From contig CM074702.1 of the NCBI GenBank assembly GCA_037367355.1, positions 2,232,001 through 2,296,000 of the forward strand: a DNA stretch of 64,000 nt, in the 5' to 3' direction. Origin of the DNA: Neoscytalidium dimidiatum (Eukaryota > Ascomycota > Dothideomycetes > Botryosphaeriales > Botryosphaeriaceae). A model generated the notes under the pieces. That model was not told where the DNA came from. It was given only the letters and a program-made list of their open reading frames with translations, and searched no databases. Of the stretch, positions 960-26,246 are shown in pieces (position 1 is the first letter of the stretch; each line of letters opens with the position of its first letter). The translations under genes were made by a program, and so were the position numbers.

Positions 960-1391
960 GACAGCTGTCATAAGGCGCCATGCGCATGAGAAGGGAGTGA
1001 AAAAGAAATGAGGAATAGAAGACGAGGGAATGGACGGAGCGAGGCTCTGCCACCGTTGTGGGGGAGCTCATGGCTGCAGACGGAAGGATCCTATCCGCCG
1101 GAGACGCGCGCACGATGTTGCCGCAGGAGGCTCTTGCTTTCTTTTCCCGGCGGATTAGAAAGTGCCAAATGTCCGGCGGGCGCTGCATAAGGCGACGGGG
1201 AAAGTATGCAATGTAGTAGCGAGAACATAAAAAGCGATAGAAGGAAAGAACGAATTTTCCTTGGCTGTGTCTCACTGTCACCTCGGTGTTGCTGCCCTAC
1301 GATGCAGGCTCATCCCTTGCTCCCCTCGTGTTATCTACTGGTTACGTGATGGCGCGGAATGCTGTGTGATTTTCTAGAATGCAAGTTTTTG

Positions 1392-1398
<7 letters not shown>

Positions 1399-1423
<25 letters not shown>
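1399..1423. repeat. (CT)12 microsatellite
   Basis: Perfect CT dinucleotide run followed by an imperfect CCCTCTCC tail. It lies in the gene-free interval downstream of CCT5. Confidence 0.95.
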
Positions 1424-4400
1424 CCTCTCCTTTACTCGTCACTAGACTGCGCGGGCGCTGCGAAGGGGGGGAGGACAACGTAAGATTTGTTGTTGACCGT
1501 TTTCCAAACAAGTACGATGGACTCATGAAACCCAGAATGATTGGAGGAGAAGTAATCTCCGGTATTCGAAATACTACTGTACATGGGACTTGCATCGGAA
1601 CACGGCAGCTTGTCGTGCCTGTACATGCAACTGTATGTACAGTACATGTGGTGCAAGCATTTTCCCACAATGTATGCCGCGCACATGTGCTGCACGTCTT
1701 GCCGTGCAGCGAACGTGGCAGAGACAAAGACGGGCCTTTTCTTGTCTGCACCATGTGATGGTGGGAATGCTGCATTTCTACCCCGCCTGCCCGGTTTTGC
1801 TTACGCTTTCGCCGCGGAGTGTTTTGTTTCTCCGTGCGGTGTATCGTATCGCTGCTGCTGCTGCTGCTGCTGCTACTCTATGTTGCATTTTGCTGTCGTG
1901 AAGGTCTTGGTCTTGTTGATTGGTGCAAGGGGGATATCAGGAAAAGACGGAAGGGAGCGGGTGCCGTGCGATGGATGGTGCTGCTCCTTGCTTGAGACGG
2001 TACGACGGATCGCCGCGGATGGGCAGTTGAGGACATTCGTGTTGAGAAACTTCTGGAAATGCTCATTCTGATGATCAGTACAGTGTACACGAATGCAGTT
2101 GCTGGATTACGCGTCCAAAGGTCACGGTCGGTGTTGGAATGTTTCACCCTTATGGTTGCTGTATGCAAACCTGCAGCAAAAGAGGTACGTAGGAGTAGAC
2201 TCTTCAAGCTTCATGACTCGTAGGCAGTTGAGCCAGCGCCTCGGATGCGAAATTGACAGGTATTCTGATCAATCATGTCTGGAGCACTCCCTTCAGCTCC
2301 GGCTGCTGTTTTCTTGTTGCAGGCCAGCATAGCACGTCGATTGTCATGAGACAGAAGCGTGACTTTAAAGAACGTTCTCGAAACCAGGCAGAGTGTGAGA
2401 TCAAAGAGCAGGATTATCAGTACTGATCGCTAAGTGGAACTGCGTTTTGAGGTTTGTTGAAAGCGTCTTCCATCGGGCAGATTTGCAACACAGCCATGTC
2501 CTGTGTAAGCACTGCTGGGCAGTTCGTTGCTCTACTCTGGCGAATGCTTCCTTTCTGACCAATGAGAAGCTATAGATGATAAGAAGCATTGACATCTTCC
2601 CAATCCGGAGAGATGTTTCTCTTTGTGGTAATTTGAGGCGCAGGTCAGGGCCACCGCGTCATCAGCGGCGAAGTTGACGGTTATCACGACGAGCCTCCAC
2701 AGGAGAAGTCTCTGCATCCCATCTAGGATTTTCAGAATGGCCGATACAAAATCTGACTGTCATACGAACTCTTCTCTTCTCGGGGAGAGGGGTGGGGTGG
2801 GATTTGATCCACTACATGTCAAGCTCAGACGTCATAGGCGTTAAGGCCACCCCCTCGTGCTCGCCACGTAGGACTTCATGATGGGAAAAAAAAAAATTCA
2901 CACACATCGCGGGCCTTCCGTCATAGCACGACATCACTGCATCGACTCAGGGACCAGAGATGCCCATCGAGTGCAGGCAACGAAAGGATTTGGTATCATG
3001 CCCTCATTCTCCGGGTGCCATATCCCACTTCTCTGTCCAAGGCGACCCTGCCCACCAATTCCCCGCGCTGCCCTGCTCCGCTTCGCACTTTCCCCGGCCC
3101 ATTGAGACCCGACGAAGATCCGATCCGCTGACCCTGAATGCTTTGCAAGAAGGCAAAAGCCGAACGAAAGAGAGAGATCCCCCAGACGAATAAACGAGGG
3201 CATCCGAGCGTTGGCGGCGGCGATGGCGGTGGCGTCAATTGGGCCTCCCATCTCCGACTTCCTCTTCCCCAAACCCCGGATAATGTCAGCGCAAACCGAG
3301 CGATGATTGGCATCCGAACCGGGAAAAATGCGGCGACCTCCTCCACATCGTGAACCCTCATCTCGTCTCTTGAGTAATGAAGCTTGTACACGCGCTCAAC
3401 TCGATGCCCCCGCGCGCCAGTGCCCCCAAGCGAGGATCGGAAAGAGGGCGTCGTGCGAATGCCCGCGGATCCGGCCAAACTGGAGGTCAATGGCATTTCC
3501 CTCTATACAGTAAGCCGTCGAACCAGCATGCCCACAGGTCATCAAGAGGTTGAGGCATTCAGGTACGTCGCCCTCCCACCGGGGCAACCAAAACGCATGC
3601 CAATCTCGCGCCTCCTAAAACCCAGACGCATATCGTGACCGGCTACGGCCGCCGATCAAATAGTCTAGGCCAGGACTCTTTTCCCGCCGCAAAGGCCAGC
3701 CCTATTCACATTGCTGCTGCGTGTCGCCCTGCATGCAGACAACGCATGGCGCGAGACGAGCGCAGCGGGAGGAGCATCACGCTCAACCCACCACCTACGT
3801 CATCGACCAAGCTTTCCCCCACACACAGGGCCCTCGCTTCCCCCTGTCCGTCAGCTTGTTAGCTAGCAAGCCTCAGCCTCCGACTCCGACACGACACCAC
3901 ACGACACGACACGACACTGAGGAGCGGAGCCGATGCAAGTCACGCAACAACAAGGGGCGCGCAGCAGGCCAGCAGCTAGCACAGCAGCAGGAGCGAAGCT
4001 ACACCGCGCTGTGCCGGGCGATCCGTCCGATCAGAGACAGTCAAGCACAGTAGCTAAGACACAACGCTAAAAAGGACGCCGCCATCGCGAACATCTCACT
4101 CTCGCCTTGAACAGGCACCACATCGGCCGATGCACCATCAAGCGCGGCCGACGCAAGGCACGCCCGGTATACAGCGCCACCTCTCACCACGTAGGGGGAG
4201 GGGGAGGAGAGGGGAAAAACGTGGCGAAGCGGCGGTGGCATCGGGGGAGCCGCAGTAGGTAGCATCTACTCCTCCCTCTATCTCGACATCTGTCTTTCTA
4301 GTTACGTAGCTACGTCGCATTTACCGCTCGCCAAATCCCACAGAGCACGCCAGAGCCAGAGTCAGATCAGGCGCGCGCACACACGCGTTACAGCCTGGCC

Positions 4401-4461
4401 CTTCCGCCCCAATCACCCCCCCTCTATTCCCTCAATTCAATCTTGCCCGCGCACAGCCCTC

Positions 4462-4487
4462 CTCTCTCTCTCTCTCTCTCTCTCTCT
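4462..4487. repeat. (CT)13 microsatellite
   Basis: Perfect CT run in the gene-free interval, about 190 bp from a second, longer CT run. Confidence 0.95.
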
Positions 4488-4667
4488 GTCACTCGTCCGC
4501 CCTGCTCTCTTACTGCCTCCCCTTCCATCTCTCACACCACGCCGCGGGCGGTGCGGGTGGCCTGTCCAGCAGTGGGCCGGGCACGGAGGGCACGGATGGC
4601 CGGCCACGTTGTTGCGGGCTGTGCGCGGCGCCGTCCGTGTGTTGCCCCTCCGCCCCCTCCCTCTCTC

Positions 4668-4670
<3 letters not shown>

Positions 4671-4716
<46 letters not shown>
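4671..4716. repeat. Compound (CT)18(GT)5 microsatellite
   Basis: A 36-nt CT run passes directly into a GT run. It is the longest pyrimidine microsatellite in the window. Confidence 0.95.
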
Positions 4717-4990
4717 CTTCTTTCCTCGCCCAACAGTCGGGCCTTCTCTTCCTCGTTTACCCTCTCTCTCTCCCGGCTCCAGACCCCGTGCGTGCCCTTC
4801 TTGAAGGGCATGAAGAGGAGTTTCGTCGCCCCCACCCTCCTCCTCCTCGGCTCTCCCCCGCCACTTTTGCTGCCCTCTTCCGTCTCCCCGAGTAGCGAAA
4901 GACAGTGAAGGGGGCGGCGGCTTCCGATAGCCAACGGAGGGGGTTGGTGTGGGTACGTGCGAAACCGTCCGGAGGGCAGGGTAGGATACG

Positions 4991-5019
4991 GCAGGGCAGG
5001 GCAGGGCAGGGCAGGGCAG
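4991..5019. repeat. Pentanucleotide GGGCA minirepeat
   Basis: Five to six tandem GCAGG units without interruption. A (GAC)n-rich stretch and a 20-A run follow within about 130 bp. Confidence 0.9.
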
Positions 5020-5125
5020 TCAAAGTGCCCTTTGCCATTGATTCGCGTCGATGCTTGGGCGGCGGCGGCGGCGACGACGACGACGACGACGCTGACGATT
5101 CCTCTAGCCGCTCGATGCTTTGCGT

Positions 5126-5145
5126 AAAAAAAAAAAAAAAAAAAA
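5126..5145. repeat. A20 homopolymer
   Basis: Uninterrupted run of 20 A. No target-site duplication or retroelement body was noticed around it, so it is recorded as a simple repeat. Confidence 0.9.
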
Positions 5146-6146
5146 CAGTGAATGAATGCACAGGGCGCCAATAGCTGGCACGATGCAAGATTGACACGAT
5201 CTTGCGGACCAAAGCCCGTCGGAGAGGAGTAGCAGGGTTCGCAGCCTCCTGCGAACGCGGTCTTGCCCGAAGGCGAAGGGCGGCTATATGCATTGCCCTC
5301 TTTCCCGCATTCCCCGTTCGGGCAGCCAAGACTCAACGCATTATTGGAAGTGGTGGGAACAGTAGTAAATCATCTCATGCCCGTCCTTTCAAAACTTTTC
5401 CTTGTAGACCTCAATGCCAATCGATAGAAGAAAGCGAGAAAAAAAAAAGAAAATTCTTTCAACGAACATTCCGTTTCTTTTTCTTCCTTTCCCCGCCGGC
5501 CCCACGGCCAGCACGAGAACAAAAGATGATCTCCGGCAAGGGGGGGGGATAAAACATGGCCAGACCATCGGAGAGCCCGTTGGGCGAAGCGGGAATGGAT
5601 TGCAGGTAGACTGAGCAAACAGCGTTGATTCTTCCTTTCCTTCTTTTCTTCTCCCCATCCCAAGCGTCCCGAGACTCGGGCCGATCCGAACCCAACGGCG
5701 TGGGAAAAGCCAAAAAAAAAAAAAGAATCTCTCGCAGTAATCTTCTTAGAAAGCGTGCAAATCTCGATAGATGCGAGGACAGAGAAGGCGGTGATGAGAA
5801 GAAGAAGAAAAAAAGAAAAACGATGACCTAAGCCGCTGACGCGATCTCTGCGAAGGTCCAACCGATGCGACTGCGAACAAAACTCCAGCGAACGGTAGCA
5901 TCCGTCCAAATGTATCAGTGGCAGCGTGCGTGACCTTACAATAATAAGGCGCGCCGCCCGACGCAGCCCCAGGGGAACGGAAGCTCTGGAGCTTCCGCCC
6001 GCCAAAAAGACGCGCACAAACGGCTTCTGCCATCGCGTCCGTAGCACCACGCGGTGGTTTCCCTTACGGACGAGACGAGCGCGAAGCAAGAAGGACGAGT
6101 AAGGCTCGCGGTTGACCGAGCAAGGTGGCCTCGCGCTCGCTCACCG

Positions 6147-6147
<1 letters not shown>

Positions 6148-6175
<28 letters not shown>
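6148..6175. repeat. (GA)14 microsatellite
   Basis: Perfect GA run in the gene-free interval. It is the purine-strand counterpart of the CT runs nearby. Confidence 0.95.
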
Positions 6176-6177
<2 letters not shown>

Positions 6178-7282
6178 AGCGGAAGCGAAGCATCGCCGCC
6201 CCATAAGCGAACCCACCTGATGAGGTTATCACTGCGTTTGGTGATGTTGTTGTTGATGTTGTTGCTGCAGCTGCTGCAAGGGCAACGGAAAACGGCGGCC
6301 CTTTCCACCAGCCCTATCAAGCCTTCCCAAAGGCAGACAGGCCACTTTCATGCACACAAACACAGAGAGAGAAAGAACAACGGGCGGATGAACCCACAGC
6401 CCTTGGATCTAGAACGCGTCTGCGCTCGCGACAAGCCCACCTTTTTTGGAGAGGGAGGGGGGCTGCTGCGGCCAAGGCAGCCATGCGGATCAGCGATTCG
6501 CAGCCCAAAGAAGCGATTCGCGCGGCAAACCTCCCTGCTTCAGAAAGTGCTGTCTGTCGCAAGGCAGCAGCAGCAGCAGCAGCTAGGCCGGGCCAGGCCA
6601 GGCGACAGCCCGAAGAGCCCCACGCAGCCATGCCTGCAGCAGATCATACAAGAGGACTCGCTTGCCATTGCTACGATGGACAAAGACTGACCGGCAGCGT
6701 GACCTCGTAACACGCAAGAGAAATGAGGAGAGCCAATCCACGAACCAAAAACAATAAAAAAAAAAAGAATGATTGACGATAGTGGGATTGAAAAAAGGAA
6801 AAGAAAAAACTCGTCGACACACACATGCGCGCGCCTTGGGTTCCCGACGCAGCGGGAAGCAGGTCTGGGTCCCTCGTACTCGGAACAACAGCGACAGATA
6901 ATTCCAGCCATACGGCATGCTTTCCGCAGGAGAGGTGGGAAGGGGGAGGAGGGAACAAGAAGATGTGTACCAAGCCTTCGGGTTTCAATCTGATGCATCC
7001 CGCCGCCCCTCCCCGATGCCGCAGCCGCCGCCGCCGCCATCACCACCACCACTATCGCAACATCCATCGCCCCCTCTCGAAAACTCACCTACCCCCCCCG
7101 ACTCGTTTGTCTTGTGAGACACGCAGCCATGCACTTCCCCCTTCCACACGATAGGAGTTGACTCCGTCACGTATCGACGATCACCCTTTCCCACCTTTCG
7201 GCGCGCCATCGGTCGCGGGTCGTCATGCGAAAAGAAAAAAAATGCCGCTTCGCAGGATGGTGTCGCCGTCGTCATCTTAAGG

Positions 7283-10200
7283 CTACGAGGAGGGCTTGTT
7301 GGTGCCCGGTCTGCGCTTGTACTTTCGCGGGTCTGTGTTGCGGTGTGCCGCCGCACAAGCGAGTCAGCAAAAGAATCCCGTTGCGTCGTTTTGAATGCCC
7401 TCTCTCTCTCTCTCTCTCTCCACCCTCTCATGCATGCGGTGGAGATATCCGTGCCACACAATCAATGCGTATGCGGGCCGCGCAGGGACCCCCGTTTGGG
7501 GAAACGGAAACGTAAAATGAAAGAGAGCAGAGTACGTAAGCGAGAAAACAAACTGATAGAGAAACGCGTGATGTGGAGAGACGGCGGCGAAAATGAACAA
7601 CAAAGACCGGCGATAAGACGCAACCTCAAAGAGAAAGAGGAAGAGACCAAAAAGAAAGAGGAAGAGACCGAAAAAAAAAAAGAGAGAGAAAAGGAAGGTT
7701 TCGGCAGCGGCACATGCAAGCGCAGCATCGCGGCCTAGCAAGCTAACGATTCCAACCAAGGCGCTCGAGCGCAAAAGGCGGAAATTTCGCAGCAACAGCA
7801 GCAACAACAACGCCAGCGCTCGAGCATGTCCAACCACCCATGCCGAAAGGTGCCGCAAGGTCCCCCCGTTGTATAACAGACACAACGGTATAACGCCTAT
7901 GCGCACAGCGCACACGCAACACCTTCCCCTCCCCCTCCCCTCCTCCACACGGACCCCCCTCCAAATCAAAAAAAAACGCACGCGCCTCTATCTCTTCGCC
8001 AAACCCGCCCTTCTGCCCACGGGGAACCTGCAAGTTTTCCCCGGCGCCAGCGAGAGCTCGCATGGCCGGAGGGGGAAAAAAAGGACACGGGCATGTGCGA
8101 TTCCCCGTCCGTAAGCTTAATCCAACGCACATGCACACGGACACAGACACAGACGCGATGCCCATACGCGAATAATGTGCCGTGTGTGCGTGTATGCTGT
8201 GTGTCGTGCTCGAAGCAGATTCTGGTGCAAGCTTTCAATCCCACTCTCCGCTCTCTCTCCGTATCTCTCTCTCTCTCGTTGTATCCCGCTTCCCCCCGCG
8301 CGCATTGCCGCCGGCGAAAGGTGGAGAAAGCGGTTTGCCGGCCGGCCGGGAAGACCGGGCGCCCGAGCACGAACGCAAAACAAACCAATGATCAACACAC
8401 CCACGCCATGCGTTATCAGCGCGCACCCCATCCCCTCCCTTCACCGGAGAAAAGGGAAGGACGAGGAGGGCGGTCAGAGAGAAAGAGAGAGAGAGAGAGA
8501 GGAAGAGTGGGGAAATAGGAGAAGGGCGGGATAAGCAGAGCGATGCGGAGTTGTGTGTGTTGTTTACCTTCCTCCAATGAGGGAAGTGGGGGAGGGGGTA
8601 TGTGTGCGAGAGAGCGTCCACCGGAAGTAAACAAAAACAGTAAAGAGCACGCGCGCGCGTCTCACGGAAGGGGGAGAAAAAAAAATAGGACAGCGGCAGA
8701 GCGCCCAGGGGGGGGAGGGAAGGCAGAAATAGACCCGCGCCTATTGGCTTCAACAAAAAAAAAACAAATTAGGCGCAACGAGGGAAAATCGGCTGTGCCG
8801 CAGCGAAGCAGAAACACGCTACACACCACCAACAATCCTGAAACGCGTCTCGTTGGCCGGGATAAAAGAAAAAAGAGAAAGGCTTGCGTGAGGAAAACAA
8901 ATAGGCTGAAAACAAAAAGAACGACCAACAACCAGACGGCCGGGACGGAGGATGCGTCCACGTGGGCGGTGGATGATGCAACGAAAAGGGTAGTGAAACT
9001 CTCCAAAAAGAAGGAAAGACGGAAAAGCGCGAGCCAACCAACACACCACCATTTCTTCTACGGAAAAGACTAGAAGGACGGGGGAAAAAAGAAAAAGCAA
9101 AACACTAACGGAAAGCCTAAAAACGAAGGGGGGGCAACAATCGGAAGCCTGAATCGGCAAAACGGAGTTTTTCTTTCTTTGGTGTCTGAAGAGGCACACA
9201 GAGTTGCCGGAAAAACGCTTGAACATACCTTTTCTCGACATGCGCGTCCGGTCACGCGTACCTGCATCGAACACGACGCCCAAACGTCAGCAGCGATCCC
9301 GATCCTTCGAAGAACAAAGAAAACCATGAGGCATGCGCATGCGTGCATTGTTGCTGTGAGCTGTCCGGAGAGCGGTGTGGCGGGCGGCGCGGAGCAGCGG
9401 AGTATTCCCTCTGCTGGGATTTCAGCGAGAAATCCCCGTCTCTCCGTGTCTCCGTTTTGGGGCGGTTGGTGGCACGGTGGGCAGAGGAGTCGGTCGAGGG
9501 CTGTCACGCGGCCGGACTTGAAACAGGAGGCAACAATGTCGCCGCCGCCGCGGACGGATTCTTCTTTTTGTCGCCGCGGTTGCGGTTGCGGTCGGTCGGT
9601 CGGTCGGTCGCAGGCCCAAGGGTCGGTCGCGTGTGCCGCCCCGGTCGCAGTGCAACCAACGAGCAAGCGGAAGCCAGAAGCGCGGGGCCGATTCGGCAAT
9701 CTAGAGTCGCAGCCGACAACAAATAGAAGTATACCGCCGGGAGAGTGGTGCCCCCCGGTGCCATTGAGTAAGGAAGATGATGAGCCACCCGGCGGAACGA
9801 ACCAGCCAGCGACCGCGCGCGGACGTACGGCGAGCACCCGCGGTCGCATGACTTGTTTTTGAAATTATCGAAGTATTCCAATTGACCGCCGCTGGTCTGC
9901 CTTGCCCCCCAAGAGGCCGCAGGGGTGAGCCCTTTGCATTTAGATGACGCCGTATACTCGATAGGCAGAGCGAGGCTTGTCCAGGCGCGCAGTCCCGCGG
10001 ATGCACTATTGGTAGCCAGCCAAAGGTGCCAAGCCCGGTGGCAGCAAAAGCCGACAGCCAGCCAGCCAACCACCAGCGGCGCGGCGACCGTCGAGATTTG
10101 CAGGGCTGCGTGTGTGTATGTGCCAAGCAGGAGACCCGAATTCCGGCGGTGCGTACTCCTGGACGGACGGGGGACTACCGGCGGGGCAAAAAAAGGGGAA

Positions 10201-13200
10201 CGGCAGCCTCGACTGAGGGAGGAGAGGGAGGGGGAGCTGAAACTCGACCAGGAGCGTGACCCCAGATTTGCGAGGAACCCCAAAACCTGGGGCAGCAGCC
10301 GAGAGTGGGGCATAACACGCGGCGGCTGGGCCGGCGCGCACGTGGGAGGCCTGCAAAGAGCCGGATGAAGGTCTGCCACAAAACCTTCTTCTGCTACGCT
10401 TCCCATGTTTGCCCATCCGCTCTTCCACGCTCGGCTTATCCGTCGGCTCCTGCCTGAAGCTACCTCGGCCACTCGCGCGGGGCTACCTTTCGAAGAGAAC
10501 CTGGGGGAGCGCCGACGCCATTGGCGCGCTGGAAGGGCGATGGAAAAAAAAGGCGCAGCCAGACGACAAGAACCTTGGTTGCAATGCGCAGCCATGCGCC
10601 GCCCCGAGAAACGCCCAATGCGCGCGCCAAAAGCCACCGCCGGAGCTCGAGATGGGGGAGTTGAGTCGCGCGCCTGTGCTGCTGCAAACGGCGGGTTCTC
10701 CGCGAGCGCCAGCCCCTGCTGGCAGCTGCACGACGCCTGGCCCGCGCGGACCGCCCTGTCACAGCTGAAAGATGTCCTTGGAGGCGTGTCCAGTGGCCTT
10801 CGCTCCGCAGGTGCGACGCTGGCTCCACCTCTGCGCGTGCTGACGCTGCCTCGAGTGCTCGTTCCCCGGCGCCCGGGTCGCCTCGCTGCTCGACACAAGG
10901 GGGAGACCACAGAGCCCGAGTGCTTTGGGTTTGGCCTCTGACAACGGCGTGCCGGAAGCGGGTGTAGACACCCAAATTCCTTAGTGTCCGGCTCCTTCTT
11001 CGTCGTCGGCGAATCGCCGCGCCCCTAAAGCCAACGGCCTGCTTACGGCGCGCCGTCGCCAGACGCGAGGGCAGTGAAACTCGTCTTTGTGTAGGGTTTG
11101 CGCAAGAACATTGGGCAGCGGGAGATGGGGTCAAGGGGCGAATGGGAGAACCGTTTAAGCTTTTCACGATCAGATGCTGGTCATTTCACGTACCTTTTCC
11201 ACCTTCCCAGAAGCCTGTGCCTTTCTTGCCGACGAGCGTCGCGTGGCATATTCCGCAATCTTCCGGCCGGTAGTTTTGCTCGCGCGAGCCTGCGAATTTC
11301 GTAAAAGAAACGCCGTTAGGGTCCTCTGCATCTCCGGCCGGCCGGTCGAAGAGCCGCTGCGCCGGCGGGGGTGGTGATAACTCACAAAATCCACTACGCA
11401 CACAAGCAAAAGACGTCGTCAGCAATGCGCGTTCAATGACTGCATGATGATTAAGGCAGGAAGAAATGATCGACGGCGTGCTGTAGGGCTGCAGATGGCT
11501 CGGGGGAAGAATGCCGCGAGGGCCCCAGGGCACCGAGTCAGACCGCCCGCGCTCCCCCCTTGGCAACGGACCGCCGAAACAGGCAACGCGTGCGGGGGAG
11601 CTTAGCCGGGATGCAGATGTGCGTGCGACGTCACTGTGGAGCATGGATCTGGGGAGCCTCGACGCAGATCGAGCAGGCCCGGCGGGCGCGATACACCATC
11701 AAAAGTGACATACCAAATCATTCTGTTCGCGTGCTCGTTCGGGTGATCAGCTTCGTCGTCGTGGCACCTGCGATCGCTCCGTCAGTATCTGCACAACAGC
11801 GCGACCACGGCCGTCCCGATGCCTGGCGATCTCGCGATCTCCAACCGGTGGGCGCTGAGCTTGCGCCCGGGCAAATGACGATACCTGTCACATGGGTACA
11901 CCTTATTGCAACAGGAGAACCTGGTGTTTTCCAACAAGGCGCAGAGTCAGCAACAGTCCGGCTGACGGTACTAAACTCGGCAAACGTTGTGGCTTGCGGC
12001 CTACCGGAACCACCGATTGCTTTTGCTGTAGTGCTTGCAGCGCCCTCGTCTGGGCAGCTCCTGGCCCGCCACGATTCCGAGCTTCTCTTTGGCCTTCGCA
12101 GGTGGTCAGCTGTGGCCTCAATGACAGTGAAAAGCCTGCGTCAACAAGGTCGTGGCCTGACAAACCTTCTTGCGCGGCAGAGCACGGGTCGCTTGCGCTG
12201 GTCACACCGACATCAGTTGTTATGCATGGTGATACGAGTAGGCTCGTCGGGACCACCTCCGCCCGTCACGCCCCTCGAGCGCGTCCGCCCTGCACGGAAT
12301 ACATACCTGACGACGCGCTGACCAGCAGAAATTTAACCTCCGCAATCTTGAATGCTAAACAATGGTACAAACATCAGTTACTCTTGAGCGTAGCAAAGGA
12401 GCGCGATCGTGCCCAAACCACCAATTTCGGGCGGGCACATGTCTCAGGGAGACACATACTCATCTTCTTGTGGCATTCCCTGCAGATCGCCATCGACGAA
12501 TCTCCTCGCACTGAGACAACACCGGGGCTGGGATATTGAGTAGAGCATCCAGAGCATGTCGGGAGAAAATTGCTAATAGGCGATGTTGCGTCAGCCACCA
12601 CAATTCTTCAATCGGCGCGAGGCAGAGCCCAGGCAACGGGCGCGCGATACCGCAGGCGCTTCAAGTATCATCCAGAGAGGTTGAGGAACTGTGCTGCAAC
12701 AGTTTCGCGTCCGGGAAAAATGCTCTGACTGCGCACAGGATGCATCAAAAGCATTCGCACCCAATCGGGGCGTCCTACCTTGGGAGCATGTCAACAGGTG
12801 TACATCCGTCGAGGTCAAGGTAGCCAGCCCGAACAGAGTTTGCATGCATCAAATCCATGCGATATCCTTTCCATAAATTAGTCCCATGACCCAAAAAAAA
12901 ATTTGCCGTACCCCACGAAAATACCTATCCCCATGGGGTTTGCGCATTTCTTGCATGATTCACTGCGAATTCCTCTGTAGTCTGCATCAGCGTTATTCTT
13001 GATGTTGTTGACGTCCATCGTGTCCTTGCAGCGTGTGCATTTGATTGTCAGACATAGATTGACGAGCTCGAGTAATTCGATGCTGTAGAGCTCAAGGCGA
13101 GGAAACGAAATCGTGATCCCCCGCTCGGGACCGGATGTTTGAGGGTTTCCCCCGGGGAGGTCTGAGCCACCTCCTTCCGCTTCTCCATCACTACTTGAGT

Positions 13201-15007
13201 CATCAGAGTAAGAGTCGTAGGAGTCCTCCTCGGCCTCGTCATCGGGACCATCTCTTGCCCACTCCGGAGGTCTTGGAATTGTAATGATGTGACTCCTGTC
13301 GTCAGTAGAGCCAGCCTTTGTCTCCCCAACCGCCTCGGCGCCAGACGCCGCGCTGCTTCCCTCAGCAACTTGTTCCTGTACGGTTGTCAGGTCCTTCATC
13401 TGGCCGTCTAGACCTTGCACCCGGGCGTTCGGGCTTTGCTCCGCCTCTGCAGGGGGAGCTTGGGCCATTGCATGCATGTTCTGCGAAAGGTAGTTAATGT
13501 GGTTCAGCAATGACATATGCGCGAACTGTCTACTTCTTTTCTCGAAGGCTTGCTGGACGGGCGTCGCATCACGCTTGTCAATGCCCATGAGCTCGATCCC
13601 GCACGGCTGTAGGGGGTAGAGCTCAGGTACCAGCAGCTTCACCGTCTTGACGGCCTGCAGAGCAATGGGCAGGTCGGCCCTCCGCCTGGGCTCGATAGGC
13701 ACGATAAACGCGCCATCTGCCAGGGTGGAGAACTGAGGTAGGCGGCCGAGGCGAGCCTCAAGCTGGCGCGTTTCCTGGTCGCGCCGCGCTTTGGCCCGGG
13801 CCTTGTCCTCAAGGCTGTATGCAGGCTGAGGTGGCGGTGGCCTTTCCTCCGGCTGCGCTGGCAATTGGGGTTGCACGGCAACAGGCGGTGGTGAGGGTGG
13901 TGGAGGAGTGGGGACACTACTGGCGTGCTCGCCATGCTTCGGCACGGCCCTGGCCGCCGCATTCGGGACTATTTTGATGGAGAAGGTCTCGGCGGGCTGC
14001 GCGGTCAGTAGCTGCTCCAACTGGCGGTCCAAGGCGTTCATCAGGCCCAGCAGCGTCTGGCCCGGCTGCTGCTTCGCGACAAGGGCATCGAAGCCCCGCT
14101 CGACGTTCACCTGAAAGCCCCTGTCCATGTCGCGATTCGTAACGCTGAGCGACGGACGGCCCTGGTTCGGGTAGGCGGCGGGCACGCGAAGACGGCAGGC
14201 CAGCTCGTCAATGGCAAAAGGGAAGTCCGGGTCAGAGGGCTTCATCCCGAATGCCAGAATGGTCGCGCCGCCGCTGCTCGATTCGTCCGGGCCAAATCTG
14301 CGGCGGATCTGCGCCAGCTGAAACTCCCGGGGATCGTCCTGCTGCGCGCGCGGAGTGGGACGCTGGACCACGCGCGGTGCGGGCGGGCGCGGCGGGCGCT
14401 GAGTCGGTGTGGTGTTTTGAGCAGCGCCGTCCGCTGCAGCAGAAGGTTCGCTGCGTTCCGGATCCGCAGCTGTCTGGCCTTGGCGCGACCCTGACGGGCG
14501 TTGACGCGCAGGTCGGGCCTTTGCAGGCTGACCGGTGGAGACGCGCTGCTCGTGGACAAACGCACACTGGTCGCCGGCGCGGCAGCCTGGAATGCACAAC
14601 AAAAGAATCAAATCAGCACCGCGCTCAGGGATGGCATGATGGGGCAGTCTGGTGATCAGCGGCGAGCCCGGGCTACCCCACGGGCGTCGTCCGCGAGGTG
14701 CTGATAGGCAAAAGGCAATAAGAGGGTCGCGTAAGCTATTACCGGACGCGGTGCCGTAGAAGCGGCATGGCCTCCCGCGCGGTGGCGCAGCGGGCGAAGA
14801 GGCAGCTTGAGCGACGGGCGAGGCTTGGGGTTGAGGCTGAGGCCGCGCTGCCTCTGATGCGCTGGCAGCGGGCGACCCTGAGGACGCTTGCAGGGCGGGT
14901 GAGCAGATGACCGGACGTGCAGCGGCTAGAGTGATGCGTTGGCAAAACAACGTACCGGACGCGCTGCTCGTGCCGCTGCGGATGCTTGATCGACCTTCCG
15001 CGGCCAT
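7283..15007 (-). CDS. CCCH plus CHY zinc-finger protein, 14 exons, two giant introns
   Basis: Fungal nucleic-acid or ubiquitin-pathway type zinc-finger protein; the precise role is not established here. Exons in coding order: 15007-14956, 14877-14743, 14586-12925, 12866-12779, 12572-12460, 12354-12307, 12197-12166, 12093-12005, 11920-11885, 11767-11714, 11393-11386, 11289-11194, 9261-9229, 7332-7283. They sum to 2,496 nt, or 831 aa, with all phases compatible. The start has strong context (ACCATGG). A CCCH finger (C-x8-C-x5-C-x3-H) at about residues 54-75 is created by splicing exons 2 and 3. Two RWD-like regions follow (about 150-270 and 336-436), then an acidic stretch, Cys pairs (IKCTRCKDT, ESCKKCANP, PTCSGCS, ICRECHKK), the CHY finger at about 711-805 (GRCKHYSKSNRWFRFSCC, YPCDRCHDD, MICGFCSREQ, DCGICHATLVGKKGTG) and a basic tail (GTRDRTRMSRK, DPRKYKRR). 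Intron 1 (78 nt) is in frame and could be retained. Confidence 0.85.
7400..7420. repeat. (CT)10 microsatellite inside the giant intron
   Basis: Perfect CT run about 70 bp inside the 3' end of the last giant intron of the CHY/CCCH gene. Confidence 0.9.
8485..8501. repeat. Short (GA)n tract inside the giant intron
   Basis: GA run within a longer purine-rich stretch (about 8430-8600). A broken CT run lies at about 8246-8278. Confidence 0.85.
9262..11193 (-). other. Giant intron (1,932 nt) of the CHY/CCCH gene
   Basis: Donor AAAAG|GTACGTG after GGK. A CTGCTGAC branch-like site about 25 nt upstream and a CGATGCAG acceptor precede GTRDRTRMSRK; the split codon G|GT gives Gly. The intron is GC-rich and holds a GGTC tetranucleotide repeat near 9591-9610. 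A 468-codon open frame on the - strand (9504-10910) reads through most of it, but has no family character and looks like a by-product of high GC. Without splicing the frame ends at once (GGKGT, stop). Confidence 0.75.
11386..11393 (-). other. 8-nt microexon of the CHY/CCCH gene
   Basis: Eight bases are flanked by a strong acceptor (pyrimidine-rich, GTGCGTAG, with a CTGAC branch site upstream) and a strong donor (GTGAGT). They join TG..T and T..GC split codons to give the sequence ICGFCSREQ. Skipping it shifts the frame and destroys the CxxC knuckle of the CHY finger. The flanking introns are 320 nt (11394-11713) and 96 nt (11290-11385). Confidence 0.75.
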
Positions 15008-17055
15008 GGTGATAGGCAGCTGCTGTTTTTAGACGTCGATTAGGAAGACAATCGCGGTGCGGAGCGGCGATCTGGGGGTCTGAAGCTTGCTGCGTCGCGG
15101 GCGAGGTCAGCAGGCCCTCATATGGGTGCGGTTGTGGTGTTGAGCGCTCGTCTACCGTGCTGCCAGCGCAGCAGCCCAAGCACACATGTCGCCGTCATGT
15201 TCACGCACCGAAGGGCCTGCCGTGACTCATAAGGCTGCAGCGCACTGGACGGCGGCGGCGGCAGCAGCAGCAGCAGCAGCACAAGCGGCGGCGGCAGCAT
15301 CTCGTGCACTGCGGTGCGCGATCGCCCGTGAGGGCCGCGCGCGCCCCGTGTTCCACCTGCACATCGCCGCCTGCCCTGAATGAGAGACCGCGATGCTGCC
15401 ACTGACGAGCGTGTGAGCCCATTGTCGTGCTCTTAGCCCATCCACCACTCTACCGCCGGGAGCACGCACTCACGCACGCACGCACGCACGCAGTGGCAGC
15501 CTCCCAGCTATGTCGGCCCGAGGCCTCTGCCCTCGCCCACCTCTCTGCCGCCGCCGTCGCCGCCGCCGCAAAGGGGCAGCTGCACGGGCACGCAAAGTCC
15601 TCTTCCTGCTTTTCCTGGGGGCCAGCGCCCGCCAACCGCCCGTGGCACACGCGAAGATTTTTTTTTTTTTTTTACCTTTTCACCTACGCGTCTGAGTAGC
15701 CCTCCGCTCGGCGACCACCGACGCCCTGGCTGCCACAGCCAAAGACAAGCTCGCCCCGCCCCGCTCGGCACGCAGGCGGGCGGCTCCTTCTTGGGGGCGG
15801 TGATGATGGTAGTGACGATGATGATGGCTCGATGATTGTTTTTGCGCCCAGGCCACAGCGGCAGGAGCAGCAGCAGCAGCAGCAGGCCTTCCATGATGCG
15901 ATGCCGCAGCACATGCCCATGCCCACGTCCACGTCCACGCCATCCCATGCCATACCCCATCCCCAATCATCCCATGCTCTGCCATCCCATGCGCGGCCGC
16001 CCTCTTATCGCTCTTACCGCCTCTTGCCTCTGGTGGTCCTCCTCATGAGGGTGTGCACGCGCTTATGCACTTGCTCCTGGGGCGAAGTCATGGATCAAAG
16101 CTGGCCGGGCCACGCTGAGGCTTTTCTTGCATGTGCCTGTCACCGTTTTTTTCGAGGCCTGCAGGCTTCGTCGCTGGGGCGGTGGGGACCATGGCAGAAA
16201 TCGGCTGGCATCGGGTCCAGCGTCGCTAGCCAGAGATGGTACACACACGCAGTGAGGGGAGCCTGCCAGCCCCTCTTCGCCCATCATCCATCAGGAACAG
16301 CCGCAGCCAGAAGCATCCACAGCGGCAATCCGCTCATGCGAATTGCGCATTATCGTACAGCCCCTCACTACCGGTGAGCCCACTCGCCCTTCGCCATCGG
16401 TACTCATTCGCGTGTACTATCGCGCTCGCTCACACATCCCGGTGCATAGCGCCATTGGCTTGTTTCGAAATCCACTTTTCCAGTGATTACGCTACCTAAG
16501 CTGATTACCATCTACAAGCCGTGAGGTAATTGTGCTCCCAGGGCTTTTTCTGGCCCGGTGGAGTCCGTGGCTGCCAGAATGCGACTCGGCTCCACCCTAA
16601 CGCTTCCCCTACAAGTACAGAATCCGTATAGTGTTACAGGGCATCGACGGCGGCGGTATGCTCCGTTCGCATGTGAAATCCTCCCCCAACCCCCCCTCAA
16701 TGCAACCAAGGCGCGAGCCAATGTCGATGTCTTCCGATGATGAACCCGTCCGCCGTCCGCCGTCCAATGAAATAAACCACAAAAAGAAAATTCGTAGCAT
16801 CGTTGTGCTGCTGTGAACAGGTGCAAAATGGTATCCCGAAAAGAAGAAGTTTGAAAGCAGTCAGATGTGACCCGTGCCGTCCCGCCATGAAGCCCATGAG
16901 CCCATGAACACCATGATAAAAAAAAAAATTTATAAACGACTAGAAGCAAATCGCCAAACACCGTCACGCTATGTTCGCAAAAATGCAGTCAATGGCCGCC
17001 CGGTTCCGTCCAGGCATGTCGAGTGTTACCCGCTCGGGGAAAGAATGCAATCTGT
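15008..17055. other. 2-kb intergenic region upstream of the CHY/CCCH gene
   Basis: This should contain the promoter of the CHY/CCCH gene and the 3' flank of the DUF3295 gene, both on the - strand. It holds CAG/CGG-rich stretches (about 15250-15300), an ACGC tetranucleotide run (about 15472-15490) and degenerate CCCATG-type repeats (about 15905-15990). No gene was recognised. Confidence 0.55.
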
Positions 17056-18840
17056 TTACCATCCTCTTTCGTGGTACTCCTGGAGACCGGTGTCGAAGTA
17101 ATTTGTCGTCCAGGAATTGTTGCCCTTTGCTGCGTTCTCCTTGACCGTGGGAAGCGCAGATGGCTGAGGCTCGCCAGGGTAGTTCTTGAGATTCTTCACA
17201 TCGGTTGATGTGTGCCTCCTCTTCAAGACCGCGTTGTTGGTCGAGTTCTTCTGCTGGCGCTCCCACAGCAGGTGCTTGCGAAGAGACTCGGTCAGCTCCG
17301 TGGTGAGCATGTTTCGCCTGGTGGTCCGAGGCGAGAGGGCCGGAGGGGCGTGTGTGTTAGAGGTGGTCATAATGATGGGCTTGGACCTGGGGATTTGGTT
17401 TTCCTGCTCAGGTTGGTATCGCAACGTATGAGTGTTGGGGGATGCCGCAACGGATGGTCCATTGGGCGAAGATGTCCTTGATCGGCGCAGGGCAGGGGTG
17501 GACCGGGATGCAGCGTTCTGTAGTGCCTGGGCGCGATCGCCTTCGTGCATAAGGGTCGTCAAGAGCGAGCGGCGCGAGGTCAGGTTGGGCTTCGAGTCGA
17601 CCCTCTGGAAAGACACTTTCTCGTTGACGCTGGACGGACCGCTCTCATCGTCCGAGTCCTCCCACTGATCCTCGTCATCGTCCTCGATGGCGCTCTCAGA
17701 AACCTCCTCTTCCTCGCTATCGCTCTCGAAGACTTCCTCGCTCTCGTATGCCTTGTGCTCGGGAATCCTGGAGGAAAGCTCGTCCTTGAAAGACGTTTGC
17801 TTGCGGGGTCCAGCGTTCGGCCTCTTCAAGCCGTCCGACAACGAGCTACGCATGTTGCTCAGCTGGCTCATCTGCATGTGAGTTTCCAGGGAGCTGTTGC
17901 CGTCCTCATCGGATGAGCCACCGAGGGTGAACATCGCACCCTTCTTCTTCTGGACAGGGGCGGGCTGTGTGTGCTGCGGTTGCTTGATGGCGGGAGCGGG
18001 CAGAATGCTTTGGTGAAGATTCGTCTTCGACCTGTATGAAGACGAGATGCGACCAGGCGAAAAGCCACGGACGACGCTGTGTGAGCTGCAGTCGGTCGAA
18101 GTGCTGGTGTCCGAGCCCACGACGGGAGGGCTCATTTTTGAGAGATCGCTGTCAACGGCGGTAGCAACAGTGGAAGTGGAAGACTCGGGGACCATTTGGG
18201 GCTTCGTGGCCGCAGGAGGAGGCTTGGATTCCTCGGCTGGCTGCTCGTTCAGCTTAGTCTCCTCGGTCTTCAGTTCGGGAGATGGCATCGGCAAGGGGGC
18301 GAGAGGCTCCAGATCCCGCTTCTCCTTGATGGAAATGACTAGACTCTCAAGGTCAACAGGCGTGATGTGCTTTTCTGTGCCGCGATTCCGGCTGTCTGTC
18401 GAGTCTTGTCTGCGAATGTGGGGCCGCGAAGAGGTGGTGGATTGCAAGGTGGATGCGCTGTCGACGCGCTCGTCGGAGTCGTCCGAGTCAACGCTGGAAG
18501 ACAGGGCGGGAATGGAAAGCGAGCCCGAATCTGAGGTCTTTCGCGAGTAGGACCAGCGCGGGGTGGTGAAGAGGGCGGTGTTTGCGTTGTGGTCGGGAGC
18601 GCAGCAGAAGGTCTCGCGATTCCATAGGCGCCAGCTCAGGTTCTCGAGACGGCGGCCCTCTTCCATGGTTTCGGCGCACTTAGAGAACACTAGAAGGTGA
18701 TCAGCGAGACGAGGCGCGCGTAGTGAGCGCGACAGCTTACCCGACCAGAGACCGAACAATTGCTCGGCAGAGCGGGTGTCCACCGTGTGAATGGCGGTCG
18801 ACTCCACATGGAGTATGGGAACCTGGGGTTTGAAAGGCAT
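17056..18840 (-). CDS. AreA GATA-like (DUF1752) / DUF3295 regulatory protein, Mks1-like
   Basis: Two exons, 18840-18741 and 18689-17056, 577 aa, joined by a 51-nt intron. The splice recreates LFGLWSVFSKCAETM, followed by LENLSWRLWNRE. This is the short N-terminal domain known as the AreA GATA-like domain (DUF1752), at about residues 28-60. The remainder is Ser/Pro-rich and predicted disordered, with an acidic block (about residues 350-395), a conserved KVSFQRVDSKPNLTSRRSLL stretch and the C-terminal ELTESLRKHLLWERQQKN segment typical of DUF3295. Related fungal proteins are linked to nitrogen and TOR signalling, but no zinc-binding GATA finger is present here, so direct DNA binding is not implied. 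The ATG at 18840 (MPFKPQVPILHVES) is preferred; there is no ATG upstream in the frame. Confidence 0.8.
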   Translation of the reverse strand: MPFKPQVPILHVESTAIHTVDTRSAEQLFGLWSGKLSRSLRAPRLADHLLVFSKCAETMEEGRRLENLSWRLWNRETFCCAPDHNANTALFTTPRWSYSRKTSDSGSLSIPALSSSVDSDDSDERVDSASTLQSTTSSRPHIRRQDSTDSRNRGTEKHITPVDLESLVISIKEKRDLEPLAPLPMPSPELKTEETKLNEQPAEESKPPPAATKPQMVPESSTSTVATAVDSDLSKMSPPVVGSDTSTSTDCSSHSVVRGFSPGRISSSYRSKTNLHQSILPAPAIKQPQHTQPAPVQKKKGAMFTLGGSSDEDGNSSLETHMQMSQLSNMRSSLSDGLKRPNAGPRKQTSFKDELSSRIPEHKAYESEEVFESDSEEEEVSESAIEDDDEDQWEDSDDESGPSSVNEKVSFQRVDSKPNLTSRRSLLTTLMHEGDRAQALQNAASRSTPALRRSRTSSPNGPSVAASPNTHTLRYQPEQENQIPRSKPIIMTTSNTHAPPALSPRTTRRNMLTTELTESLRKHLLWERQQKNSTNNAVLKRRHTSTDVKNLKNYPGEPQPSALPTVKENAAKGNNSWTTNYFDTGLQEYHERGW

Positions 18841-21800
18841 CGTGGGCGACGGCGCGGCCGTTGCGAAGGTCGCGGTCGTGGTGGCGGTTATTTGAGGTTG
18901 GTGGTGGTGGAGGGAGCAGTGGTGCAAAGGGCGAGGATGGCTGTTTCCGGAGCAGACGATTGCGTCAAGATCGGCAGGCCCAAATACCGCAGTGCTGGCG
19001 ATTGAGTGCAGGCGTTCGGCGCGGGTTCATAAGTAATGCGGCATGCCCGGACAGCGTGGCAGGCTTGGGCAGGTGAGACAGCAGGCGTGCGTTGTGCTGG
19101 CGTGTGGTGAGGGTGAGGGTGAGTGGCGGCCTTGCAGTCGGTAGGCAGGTGGTGTGTGTGTGTATGTGTGTGTGTGTGTGTGTGTGTGGGCGCGGGCGTG
19201 GACGTGGGCCTGCGGAATGGGAAGCTGGGGGGGGCTCTGGATCATAAGAATCCGGGAGAGCGAGAGACAGTGCTTTTGTCTGACAAGTCAACCCGCACAA
19301 GCTCACGGTGCCTGCGACCACCACGACCAACCGGCGCCGTGGGACTTGAGGCGTTTGCGCATGGGCAGAGGCATGGAGCGGCAGAGCATGGGGGGGCGCA
19401 CACGCCGGGGGGCACGGGCAGTGCGCGCACGGAGAGACGCGGGCAGCGAGAACGCGCACGGGGGGAGGGGGCAACCTCGGAATGCAAGTCACAAGAGCAC
19501 ACGCTGGATCTGCCTCAGCCTGCGGCGTGCGTCCAAAAACGTGCAAGGCCACCGCCAGCGCGTACGAGTCGCGGTGGAGCCGGCTGCAGCGCCAGCGACG
19601 CTTCCGCTCTTCCCCAGAGTAGCGCCGACGTCCCCTGGCAGCCCAGCGCCCAATCGAGCGCCGCGCGGCTGAGCTGCTCCGGCCGCCTGAAGAAGCTCTC
19701 TTCCAGAACCGCAACAGAACAAAGCCGCCCGAGTCAGCGCCCGACACCGCCAGCTGCCCATCCAGCGCCGCCCGCCGTTCCTGGACGCGCTCTGTGCGCA
19801 TCGCCAGACACGCCAGCCGCCCGCGCGACGAGGCGGCTGCCCCGGCGACCACGGCGGCAAGCCGTCGACGCCTGGGCAGCGCCTCTCCGGGGACCGCACG
19901 CGCCGCCGTGCGCGCTCCGGCTCAGGCGCGCAGGCCGTGATCTGGCCGCGTTTTTTTCGTTACCGTCGGCCGTGGGTAAATACCGGGCGTACTGCTCGCC
20001 CAAGACGGCCAGCGCCTAGCCGCAATCGACCTCCACACGACCTCGCTCCGGCCGGCTTCGCCTCAAACGTCGAGCGGCCGGCCTGCGGGCTGGATGATTC
20101 AAGCGCGTCTCGAATGCCACATCGCGCTGGCCCGTACGAGCAGGTACTTGTACCAGTACGTAACAGCGCCCGCCTGCCGCTGCTGGACTTCTCTCCGCGC
20201 CCTCTCCGCCGCCCGGGGCCCTGTTGCTGCCTCTGCTGTGGCCCGCCGCCGCCCATTGCCAGCCCGCCATTGCCAGTGGCGGCGACGCGACGCGACGCAG
20301 CGCTGGCCGTCGCCCGCTGCCCGTCTGCCCGCTGTCCGCTGCCCGCCCGTCGCAGAGTTTTGCAGCTCACCGGTGAAAGCACGCGCGACGGGGATACTTG
20401 GGCGGGCGGGGGGCGGCGTTGTGTGTCGGCAGCAGCCAGGAACACAGGGTCGCCACGCCGCTGTTGTCGCTGCTGTGGCTGGAGCATCACATGTGCGGGA
20501 GGAATTTTCCGGTTGCAGCTGACTTGCTCTTCTCGGCAGGCCGCAAGCCCAGCGTGTCGCAATTTGAGGTTGCTGCTCTGAGCATTGGCGGCCTGCGCAC
20601 GCCCGGCCGCACGCACGCATGCACGCTCGCTCGCTCGCTCGCTCGTGGCGTGGGGTGCTGCGATGTGTACTGGCTGCTGAGGCTGCTGGCGCGCGCGCAA
20701 TTGCGCTGCCCTGGACGGTGCCCTGGTGATTGACTGATGCGAGCTGCCCTGGGCGGGAGGATCCAACGGCGGGTGCTTGATCTGACGCTCTCGACGAGGC
20801 TGTCGAAGATCAAGCGCGCGCGCGGCCTGGGCTTGCCTGATGAAGTGGCAGTGGGCGGGCAGTCATTTGATGCGTCTCAAGCACGCCGGTGGCCATCATG
20901 TGCAACCAGCTGTTTTCAGCAGTGGTGATCCGCCAGCTTACTGCGGATCTCCAGGAGAGCGCAGATGACCAGAGCCGGGGCGTGGTGTCACAGCAGGCAG
21001 GCAGACCGGCCAGGCAGGCCGGGCGACGACCGTTGTAACTGTATGCGTGACCAGGCCCTCCAGACCCTGAGCTGCAAACCCCCCCGTCGTCTCCGCAAAA
21101 AGCGGCGACGCTACCCCGGGGGTACACGCTGCGCAGGCGAGTTTGCCACCTGCGCCCAAGTCTCGGCCGGTAACGAGTTAGCAGGTCGAGTCCACGCTCG
21201 CTGTTTCTCCGCCATTGAGCGCGCGCAGATCAGGGCCAGCCAGGGCCAGTCAGGGCCAGTCCGGCCACAGGGTCAGCCTCGAATCTCGTCGGAGCTTTAC
21301 CACCCATGCGCCCCCCGTGATCCCCGCTCCACTCGGCGCCCTGGGGCTCCCGCCACGGCTGCTCCAACAGGCCACAGGCCGCTGCTCACGGCCACTGCCC
21401 TGCCCGCGCTGCCTCCCGTTGCTTCTGCCGACCGCTGAGCCGTCTGACAGCCTCTCCGCCGCTCTGCGCGCCTGGCCGCAGCCGCCCAAGCGCTCCGTGC
21501 AAGTGACACGATGTTCAGGCGGCTGCGTGCTGCGCAGTCCCCGGATTGCGAAGCCTTGCCGCATGGTCGCAAACGAACTTCCCCGGACACTTGGACCACT
21601 CACGCCCAGCGCGGCCAATCCCTCCCGTCTGGCCGATGCAGCAAGCGCTGGCGATGTAGCGTCGGGTTGTACGCAGCAATTTCGTGCTGACGCGAGGGCC
21701 GCCGGCAGGGCAGCAAGGGGAGATTCGCTTTCCAGAAGGCCGCGGGCCCATCGTGTGTAATGGGGTGCAGTGGGTGTAGTGGGCGCAGTGGGCGCGGCGG

Positions 21801-24800: not shown

Positions 24801-25213
24801 GCTAGTCATGCGCACATTCAGCACTCGGCCCCCAACCTCGCCTCAAAGCGCTGCTGGGCTGCTCAGACGCCTACTCACATGGTCGAAAATGGAAGGACAC
24901 GATGGCACCGTGTACGGGGCCGGTTGGGGTTTTGGGGCCGTAAGCATTCATCCGAGGGCGGATGTGTCAGCGCCATGGCTCAGCTTTCCCTCCCGTCGAA
25001 GACTATTCTCGTCAGCGCATGCGCCCCAACGCCTTCTCCGCGAATCGCCCCCAGATTTACTCTCCGTCACTCGGCTCCTCCGCCCCGCGGCAGCCTCATG
25101 CTCTACCTTTCCCCCGGATCTTCCGGTGGCTGAACTCCGTGCGGGCTGTCGTAAGCCGCGTGTGTGCGCGCGCGCGTGTGTGTGTGTTAGTCGTGGCCGG
25201 TGAGGCCGTTTGG
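18841..25213. other. 6.4-kb GC-rich stretch with no gene I can support
   Basis: Upstream of the DUF3295 gene. Open frames are numerous and long on both strands because of high GC, but they overlap, change frame and lack family motifs. It holds a GT microsatellite, a GGGCCAGTCA-type repeat (21236-21264), a CTCG run (about 20625-20645) and several CAG runs. One frame deserves mention: 22103-21600 (-) starts with a signal-peptide-like segment (MVSLLFLVVAALVLVQILPP) and would give a 167-aa protein of no recognisable family. I do not call it as a gene. Confidence 0.5.
19150..19187. repeat. (GT)n microsatellite
   Basis: GT run of about 38 nt with one TA interruption, just upstream of the DUF3295 gene. 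Confidence 0.9.
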
Positions 25214-26174: not shown

Positions 26175-26246
26175 CGCATCGAAGTGATCAAGAAAATTAA
26201 GCACGGCGAAAACCAGCGTGTGACAAGCAGGAACTATATCTCCTAA
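26175..26246 (+). CDS. Orphan terminal exon of an unidentified gene
   Basis: A long pyrimidine tract ending CCCGTCAG is followed by a 72-nt open segment coding RIEVIKKIKHGENQRV plus TSRNYIS and a TAA stop. The acceptor quality and the well-formed, charged C-terminus suggest a real last exon on the + strand. I could not find its upstream exons in the preceding 7 kb and do not recognise the family. Given the giant introns elsewhere in this window, the rest of the gene may lie well upstream. Confidence 0.35.
   Translation, partial: RIEVIKKIKHGENQRVTSRNYIS

What the first reader, a model, noticed from the sequence alone, without database searches (positions are those of the whole stretch)
7283..11289. 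Two consecutive ~1.9-kb introns isolate the last two exons of the CHY/CCCH zinc-finger gene
The CHY-finger frame stops straight after GGKGT at 11193, but the expected family C-terminus (GTRDRTRMSRK, then DPRKYKRR) appears in two short islands 1.9 and 3.9 kb further on. Both are bounded by good splice sites, with branch-like CTGAC motifs and matching split-codon phases. Introns elsewhere in the window are mostly 48-110 nt, so these are 20-30-fold larger. An automatic annotator would almost certainly truncate this protein. Such introns in a filamentous fungus may carry an element, a non-coding RNA or regulated splicing.
Basis: partly seen in the sequence, partly recalled or inferred. Interest (0 to 1): 0.78.

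Follow-up and report, generated by a model that had tools for sequence, protein, structure and literature searches.

The report
Two giant introns near gene end
A conserved fungal zinc-finger gene has its last two tiny coding pieces set apart by two introns of about 1.9 kb, some twenty times the usual length for such fungi; the coding pieces are real and easily missed by gene annotation, but nothing special was found inside the introns.

Summary
On the minus strand a CHY zinc-finger gene resolves into 14 exons encoding one open frame of 834 aa. Introns 12 and 13 are 1932 and 1896 nt; the other eleven are 58-320 nt. Exons 13 and 14 encode GTRDRTRMSRK and DPRKYKRR, the conserved family C-terminus, with GT-AG ends, CTGAC branch-like motifs and matching phase 1. 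Of 120 listed relatives (of 1178 matches), 102 carry the full tail; the other 18 leave it at one of these two junctions, against 0-2 breaks at introns 3-11. So both intron positions are old. Whether the introns are long elsewhere could not be tested.

The suggested cargo was not found: both introns are single-copy and no Rfam match reaches its gathering score. A 468-codon open frame in intron 12 has no homologue and non-coding codon usage. The introns lie in a gene-poor block ending at a convergent CCT-epsilon gene. Intron 13 is unusually rich in simple repeats.

Most likely: an ordinary gene whose last two introns expanded. A frame-neutral 33-nt exon between 1.9-kb introns makes regulated tail inclusion a fair, unproven alternative.

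The parts
14956..15007 (-). CHY gene, exon 1 (ATG at 15007; start inferred)
   Evidence: N-terminus resembles Lasiodiplodia P0006
14743..14886 (-). exon 2
12925..14586 (-). exon 3, 1662 nt
   Evidence: coding codon usage in this frame
12779..12866 (-). exon 4
12460..12572 (-). exon 5
12307..12354 (-). exon 6
12166..12197 (-). exon 7
12005..12093 (-). exon 8
11885..11920 (-). exon 9, 36 nt, frame-neutral; exactly this piece is absent from the D. corticola and Phyllosticta citricarpa models
11714..11767 (-). exon 10
11386..11393 (-). exon 11, 8-nt microexon encoding GF of CGFC
   Evidence: CGFC present in relatives
11194..11289 (-). exon 12, ends ...FWEGGK|G
9262..11193 (-). intron 12, 1932 nt, phase 1
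9229..9261 (-). exon 13, 33 nt, frame-neutral (phase 1-1), GTRDRTRMSRK
7333..9228 (-). intron 13, 1896 nt, phase 1, rich in simple repeats and pyrimidine tracts
7283..7332 (-). exon 14, DPRKYKRRPGTNKPSS and stop TAG
9504..10910 (-). 468-codon open frame inside intron 12, judged non-coding
960..7282 (.). 6.3-kb convergent interval without clear coding signal between the CCT-epsilon stop (957-959) and the end of the CHY gene

Best explanation
This is one ordinary, intact protein gene: a fungal CHY zinc-finger protein whose pre-mRNA carries 13 spliceosomal introns. The last two sit at old positions in the gene and have become about twenty times longer than usual by accumulating single-copy, repeat-rich non-coding DNA in a gene-poor stretch. 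The spliceosome removes them using normal donors, branch sites and acceptors and so adds the conserved basic tail (GTRDRTRMSRK-DPRKYKRR), which may be a nuclear-localisation or nucleic-acid-contact tail. Shown here: exon structure, frame, conservation of the tail, shared junctions in relatives, single-copy introns. Inferred: that splicing is largely constitutive, that the introns grew from short ones, and what the tail does.
For: One 834-aa frame through 14 exons with GT-AG introns in consistent phase and branch-like motifs. Full conserved tail in 102 of 120 listed relatives, with the remaining 18 leaving it at the same two junctions; 0-2 of 120 broken at introns 3-11. Several read-throughs continue MSRK-GM, as our donor GGTATG would give (P0044, P0051, P0062, P0115). 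Introns single-copy in 43.76 Mb. No Rfam family at gathering score, no Pfam family over its cut-off in the intron frames tested. The largest intronic frame has no homologue at E<=1 and codon score -0.13 against 0.14 (sd 0.08) for 33 training frames. Non-coding DNA continues on the other side of exon 14.
Against: No transcript evidence. Fungi splice mainly by intron definition and rarely have introns above 200 bp (PMC2397502, passages), so a 33-nt exon between two 1.9-kb introns might be spliced inefficiently. Intron 13 has more simple repeat (9.8%) and pyrimidine tract (11.7%) than any of 100 background 2-kb tiles (maxima 6.2% and 6.4%), which could be functional. I could not show that the introns are shorter in any relative, so 'expanded' is an inference. 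A 468-codon frame without stops is long for non-coding DNA.
Confidence: 0.68

Rival explanations
1. A C-terminal switch. Exon 13 (33 nt, phase 1-1) is a cassette exon and intron 12 can be retained or end in polyadenylation, so the gene makes forms with the full tail (834 aa), without exon 13 (823 aa), or ending at GGKGT (809 aa). The long introns slow or gate the choice.
For: Frame-neutral exon; stop codon lies within the donor of intron 12 (GTACGTGA), giving a clean truncated protein. Short exons flanked by introns over 200-250 bp tend to be recognised by exon definition, the setting of cassette exons (PMC2397502, passages). The models of Aureobasidium (P0054) and Saccharata (P0032) keep the PRKYKRR end but lack the MSRK piece, which may be annotation error.
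Against: No transcript data. Cassette exons are rare in fungi (about 3% of cassette-plus-retained events in fungi and protists). No AATAAA-like signal was seen in the sense strand of intron 12 (only four hexamers tried).
Confidence: 0.15
2. The introns, or the block of which they are part, carry a functional non-coding RNA, an internal promoter or another regulatory element.
For: Extended stretch without clear coding signal (13.1 kb at threshold 14) reaching from CCT-epsilon into the gene; excess pyrimidine tracts in intron 13. A convergent interval has no promoter duty for either neighbour, so its 6.3 kb is unexplained.
Against: No Rfam match at gathering score; best sub-threshold match 19.7 bits against a cut-off of 40. 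No conservation could be tested. Repeats found are mainly simple CT, GA, poly-A and GGC runs.
Confidence: 0.11
3. A mobile element or nested gene was inserted into each intron.
For: Size and the 468-codon frame.
Against: Both introns match only themselves in the own genome; frame has no homologue among 7992 scored candidates and non-coding codon usage; no Pfam family over cut-off; the longest inverted repeats are simple CT/GA runs (25 of 122 pairs shown).
Confidence: 0.03
4. The gene really ends after GGKGT and the two islands are chance or relics; or the assembly is wrong here.
For: The unspliced frame does stop there.
Against: Tail is conserved in 102 of 120 relatives, score far above chance, phases and splice sites fit. 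No sign of misassembly was seen, but read data were not available.
Confidence: 0.03

Closest known systems
Fungal CHY-type zinc-finger proteins with N-terminal CCCH-like motif (PF05495), e.g. Macrophomina P0001, Lasiodiplodia P0006, Aplosporella P0002
   Same: Same protein throughout, 94% identical to Macrophomina over the CHY region and about 80% over residues 180-818; same tail
   Different: Here the whole tail can be read from the genome across two 1.9-kb introns; deposited Botryosphaeriaceae models that I saw lack the final exon
A. fumigatus metR, with a 599-nt intron called unusually long and said to be conserved among Ascomycota (PMC3757043, passages)
   Same: A long intron in a filamentous ascomycete gene, at a conserved position
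   Different: Here two introns, each three times longer, around a 33-nt exon at the 3' end; cDNA proof exists there, not here
Stwintrons and exon skipping in Aspergillus (PMC6616335, seen as search listing and abstract start only)
   Same: Unusual intron architecture linked to exon skipping in a filamentous fungus
   Different: No sign of a nested intron: no zero-length exon motif [CT]AG-GTRNGT in either intron

Membership tests
Fungal CHY zinc-finger protein (PF05495) | zf-CHY domain over the curated cut-off | tested here: met
   38.7 bits against 31.3, residues 732-793 of the spliced protein
Fungal CHY zinc-finger protein (PF05495) | Conserved C-terminal tail GTRDxxxMSRKDPRKYKRR | tested here: met
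   102 of 120 listed relatives carry it; present in the spliced model
Fungal CHY zinc-finger protein (PF05495) | N-terminal CCCH zinc finger | tested here: inconclusive
   Weak matches below cut-off: zf-CCCH_2 18.3 against 25.8 bits, zf-CCCH 12.4 against 20.5
Spliceosomal (U2-type) introns | GT-AG ends, branch motif near the 3' end, consistent phase | tested here: met
   the match to a motif does not prove use
Spliceosomal (U2-type) introns | Removed from the mature mRNA | not testable with these tools
   No RNA data; inferred from conservation of the joined protein
Regulated cassette exon | Frame-neutral length and symmetric phase | tested here: met
   33 nt, phase 1-1; skipping gives 823 aa in frame
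Regulated cassette exon | Both inclusion and skipping transcripts exist | not testable with these tools
   No RNA data
Transposable element insertion | Related copies elsewhere in the genome | tested here: not met
   Each intron matched only itself in the own genome
Intron-encoded structured RNA | Rfam match at gathering score | tested here: not met
   None in 4000-16000; best sub-threshold match in 7283-11300 is 19.7 bits against 40

The most novel reading that the evidence does not exclude
The gene has a built-in switch for its C-terminus. Two exceptionally long, pyrimidine-rich last introns hold a frame-neutral 33-nt exon, so the fungus can make a zinc-finger protein with the whole basic tail, with half of it, or ending at GGKGT through a stop codon placed inside the donor site; the arrangement could be conserved in the Botryosphaeriaceae.
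Probability: 0.1. Interest if true: 0.6.

Novelty: new member of a known kind. Interest (0 to 1): 0.33.

Why it matters
Mainly a lesson for gene annotation: a conserved protein end is hidden behind introns that fungal pipelines tend not to bridge. In Sordaria, for instance, models with unusually long introns were screened and corrected or removed (PMC2851567, one passage). In the relatives listed, 18 of 120 deposited or predicted proteins leave the tail at exactly these junctions. If splicing here proves regulated, the locus would be a compact test of how an intron-definition organism handles a tiny exon between very long introns.

Tried and rejected
Tried without gain. Six-frame translation of the whole interval against Pfam failed because the references contain stop codons; ten single open frames from 1377-6687 were scanned instead and gave nothing over a cut-off. 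A scan of prokaryote genome contigs for stray fungal DNA with the CHY region found 36 pattern matches and no relative. Aligning the odd tails of 12 relatives' models to our introns showed only the exon 13 match and otherwise chance-level similarities (output partly cut). Solved structures: best match to the Aplosporella orthologue has E 0.029 to an unrelated cytochrome. A structure model of that orthologue (mean pLDDT 71.4) is of low confidence over the whole zinc-finger and tail region (about 633-773), so it says nothing about the tail. Literature: no paper on introns in this gene family was found with the terms; searches gave nothing that I used.

Rejected. Nested protein gene: the 468-codon frame has no homologue and non-coding codon usage (in that output the line 'exon3 real' is one base out of frame, the true frame is the first of the 'other frames', 0.12). 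Transposon: single-copy. Known RNA. Misplaced tail elsewhere: each tail motif occurs once in the window.

Results against my reading. The earlier failures of three Botryosphaeriaceae models show that long introns are not the only annotation problem. In the second relatives list, 109 new proteins, most stop at intron 3 or 4 (34 at residue 620, 42 at 648) and only 4 reach residue 807 or beyond; that list was chosen by the N-terminal part and many entries are unnamed predictions, so I did not count it with the first. One control position inside exon 3 (residue 605, a variable stretch) showed 24 breaks of 120; the other 11 control positions 0-2. The non-coding block is 13.1 kb at threshold 14 but splits into 7.9 and 4.8 kb at threshold 12, and one sampled 10-kb stretch also had an 8.8-kb gap. 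High simple-repeat content is not unique to intron 13: the convergent interval has 8.2% and the DNA upstream of the gene 8.1%.
Full report
What is there. The minus strand from 15007 to 7283 holds a gene whose 14 exons join into one open frame of 834 aa. Pfam finds a CHY zinc finger over its cut-off (38.7 against 31.3 bits) and only sub-threshold CCCH matches near the N-terminus. The nearest protein is Macrophomina phaseolina, 94% identical over the CHY region, followed by Aplosporella and others, with Lasiodiplodia at 86%. The genome has 43.76 Mb in 40 contigs. I infer a member of the Botryosphaeriaceae; the species was not identified.

The two introns. Introns 12 and 13 are 1932 and 1896 nt; the other eleven are 58, 69, 72, 84, 96, 105, 109, 117, 156, 206 and 320 nt. 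Published means in the family are 116 bp for Botryosphaeria dothidea (PMC7325678), 85-87 for Diplodia sapinea (PMC12693491) and 86-88 for Lasiodiplodia theobromae (PMC6739476); I saw passages of these papers. Both introns have GT...CAG ends, are phase 1, and carry CTGAC about 26 and 32 nt from the 3' end. In the whole of intron 12 the sense strand has a single CTRAC motif, the one at the expected place; intron 13 has two. A rough expectation from base composition is about three in each, so this is no strong signal.

Why the islands are exons. Exon 13 encodes GTRDRTRMSRK and exon 14 DPRKYKRRPGTNKPSS, continuous with GGK in exon 12. Against the family consensus exon 13 scores 48; the next best of 566,390 eleven-residue stretches in 284 kb of this genome scores 31. 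Of the 120 relatives listed (1178 matched), 102 have the full tail, 12 leave it after MSRK and 6 after GGK or GGKG. By an alignment criterion, 4 of 120 are broken at junction 12 and 18 at junction 13 (a protein lost at 12 is also counted at 13), against 0-2 at each of introns 3-11. Where relatives read on, they often read MSRK-G and then M, as a donor G|GTATG in phase 1 would give. Both intron positions are therefore shared with other Dothideomycetes and probably with lichen-forming fungi. How long those introns are I could not learn: the proteins carry no DNA, and the one prokaryote contig scan found no relative.

Annotation. Five named Botryosphaeriaceae models were seen and none has the last exon: Macrophomina ends at MSRK, Lasiodiplodia breaks after GGK, Diplodia intermedia and Neofusicoccum ribis end at intron 3, D. 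corticola ends at intron 10, immediately before the position of our 8-nt microexon. Elsewhere in the order, Aplosporella has the full tail, two of four Phyllosticta models do, and Saccharata is disturbed at junction 12. A six-frame search of the own genome with PF05495 found two other genes and not this one, which fits a domain cut into exons of 89, 36, 54, 8 and 96 nt.

What is in the introns. Each matches only itself in the own genome (that search skips simple repeats). No Rfam family reaches its gathering score; the best of three weaker matches is 19.7 bits against 40. A 468-codon open frame (9504-10910) has no homologue at E<=1 among the 7992 candidates scored, no Pfam family over cut-off and a codon score of -0.13, like wrong frames of real genes (-0.16 and -0.18), not like the 33 training frames (0.14, sd 0.08). 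Intron 13 holds 9.8% simple repeat and 11.7% pyrimidine tract, above all 100 background tiles of 2 kb (maxima 6.2% and 6.4%); intron 12 is within the range for simple repeats (4.2%). Repeats across 950-11300 are mainly CT, GA, poly-A and GGC runs.

Setting. The next gene on the left is the chaperonin subunit CCT-epsilon on the plus strand (TIGR02343, 623.9 bits for a 355-aa exon, below the whole-protein cut-off of 710.5), with its stop at 957-959. The two genes converge across 6.3 kb. With a simple codon model no coding-like segment of score 14 or more lies from just left of the window to 12976; at score 12 one appears between 4598 and 5102. Ten open frames in this interval gave no Pfam family over cut-off. 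The two exons thus stand in about 10 kb of otherwise non-coding DNA. One sampled 10-kb stretch elsewhere had an 8.8-kb gap, so such blocks are not unique.

How it most likely works. The best-supported account is a normal gene: the spliceosome joins exons 12, 13 and 14 and adds a basic, conserved tail whose role (nuclear localisation or nucleic-acid contact) is my inference. The unusual part is size. Fungi splice mostly by intron definition, with cassette exons about 3% of the cassette and retained events in fungi and protists, and short exons between introns above 200-250 bp are thought to be recognised by exon definition (PMC2397502, passages). A 33-nt exon between 1.9-kb introns is therefore demanding. 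The predicted alternatives are simple to test: intron 12 kept, 809 aa ending GGKGT; exon 13 skipped, 823 aa in frame; intron 13 kept, 954 aa.

Novelty. Long introns are known in filamentous ascomycetes: a 599-nt intron in A. fumigatus metR is called unusually long (PMC3757043, passages). This is a larger and doubled case, without a new mechanism shown. I rate it a new member of a known kind, interest 0.33.

Noticed in passing
window 11386-11393 (-): An 8-nt microexon (TGGATTTT) is needed to restore CGFC in the zinc finger; leaving it out shifts the frame.
   Followed up: partly
window 11290-11385 (-): Intron 11 is 96 nt long and has no in-frame stop, so its retention would insert 32 residues in frame into the zinc finger.
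   Followed up: no
window 960-7282: A 6.3-kb convergent interval between CCT-epsilon and the CHY gene without clear coding signal and with 8.2% simple repeat; unusually long for a tail-to-tail gap, by my general knowledge.
   Followed up: partly
window 19928-27574: A second long stretch (7.6 kb at threshold 14) without clear coding signal by the same codon model.
   Followed up: no
window 17056-18840 (-): The upstream neighbour is a DUF3295 protein with a GATA_AreA motif.
   Followed up: no
relatives P0125 and P0126: The D. corticola and Phyllosticta citricarpa models lack exactly the residues of our 36-nt exon 9, including zinc-finger cysteines; annotation error or real skipping.
   Followed up: no
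P0002 residues 100-220 and 260-380: The structure model of the Aplosporella orthologue shows two confidently folded domains before the zinc finger that recall RWD-like folds; the name is recalled, no fold search was run.
   Followed up: no
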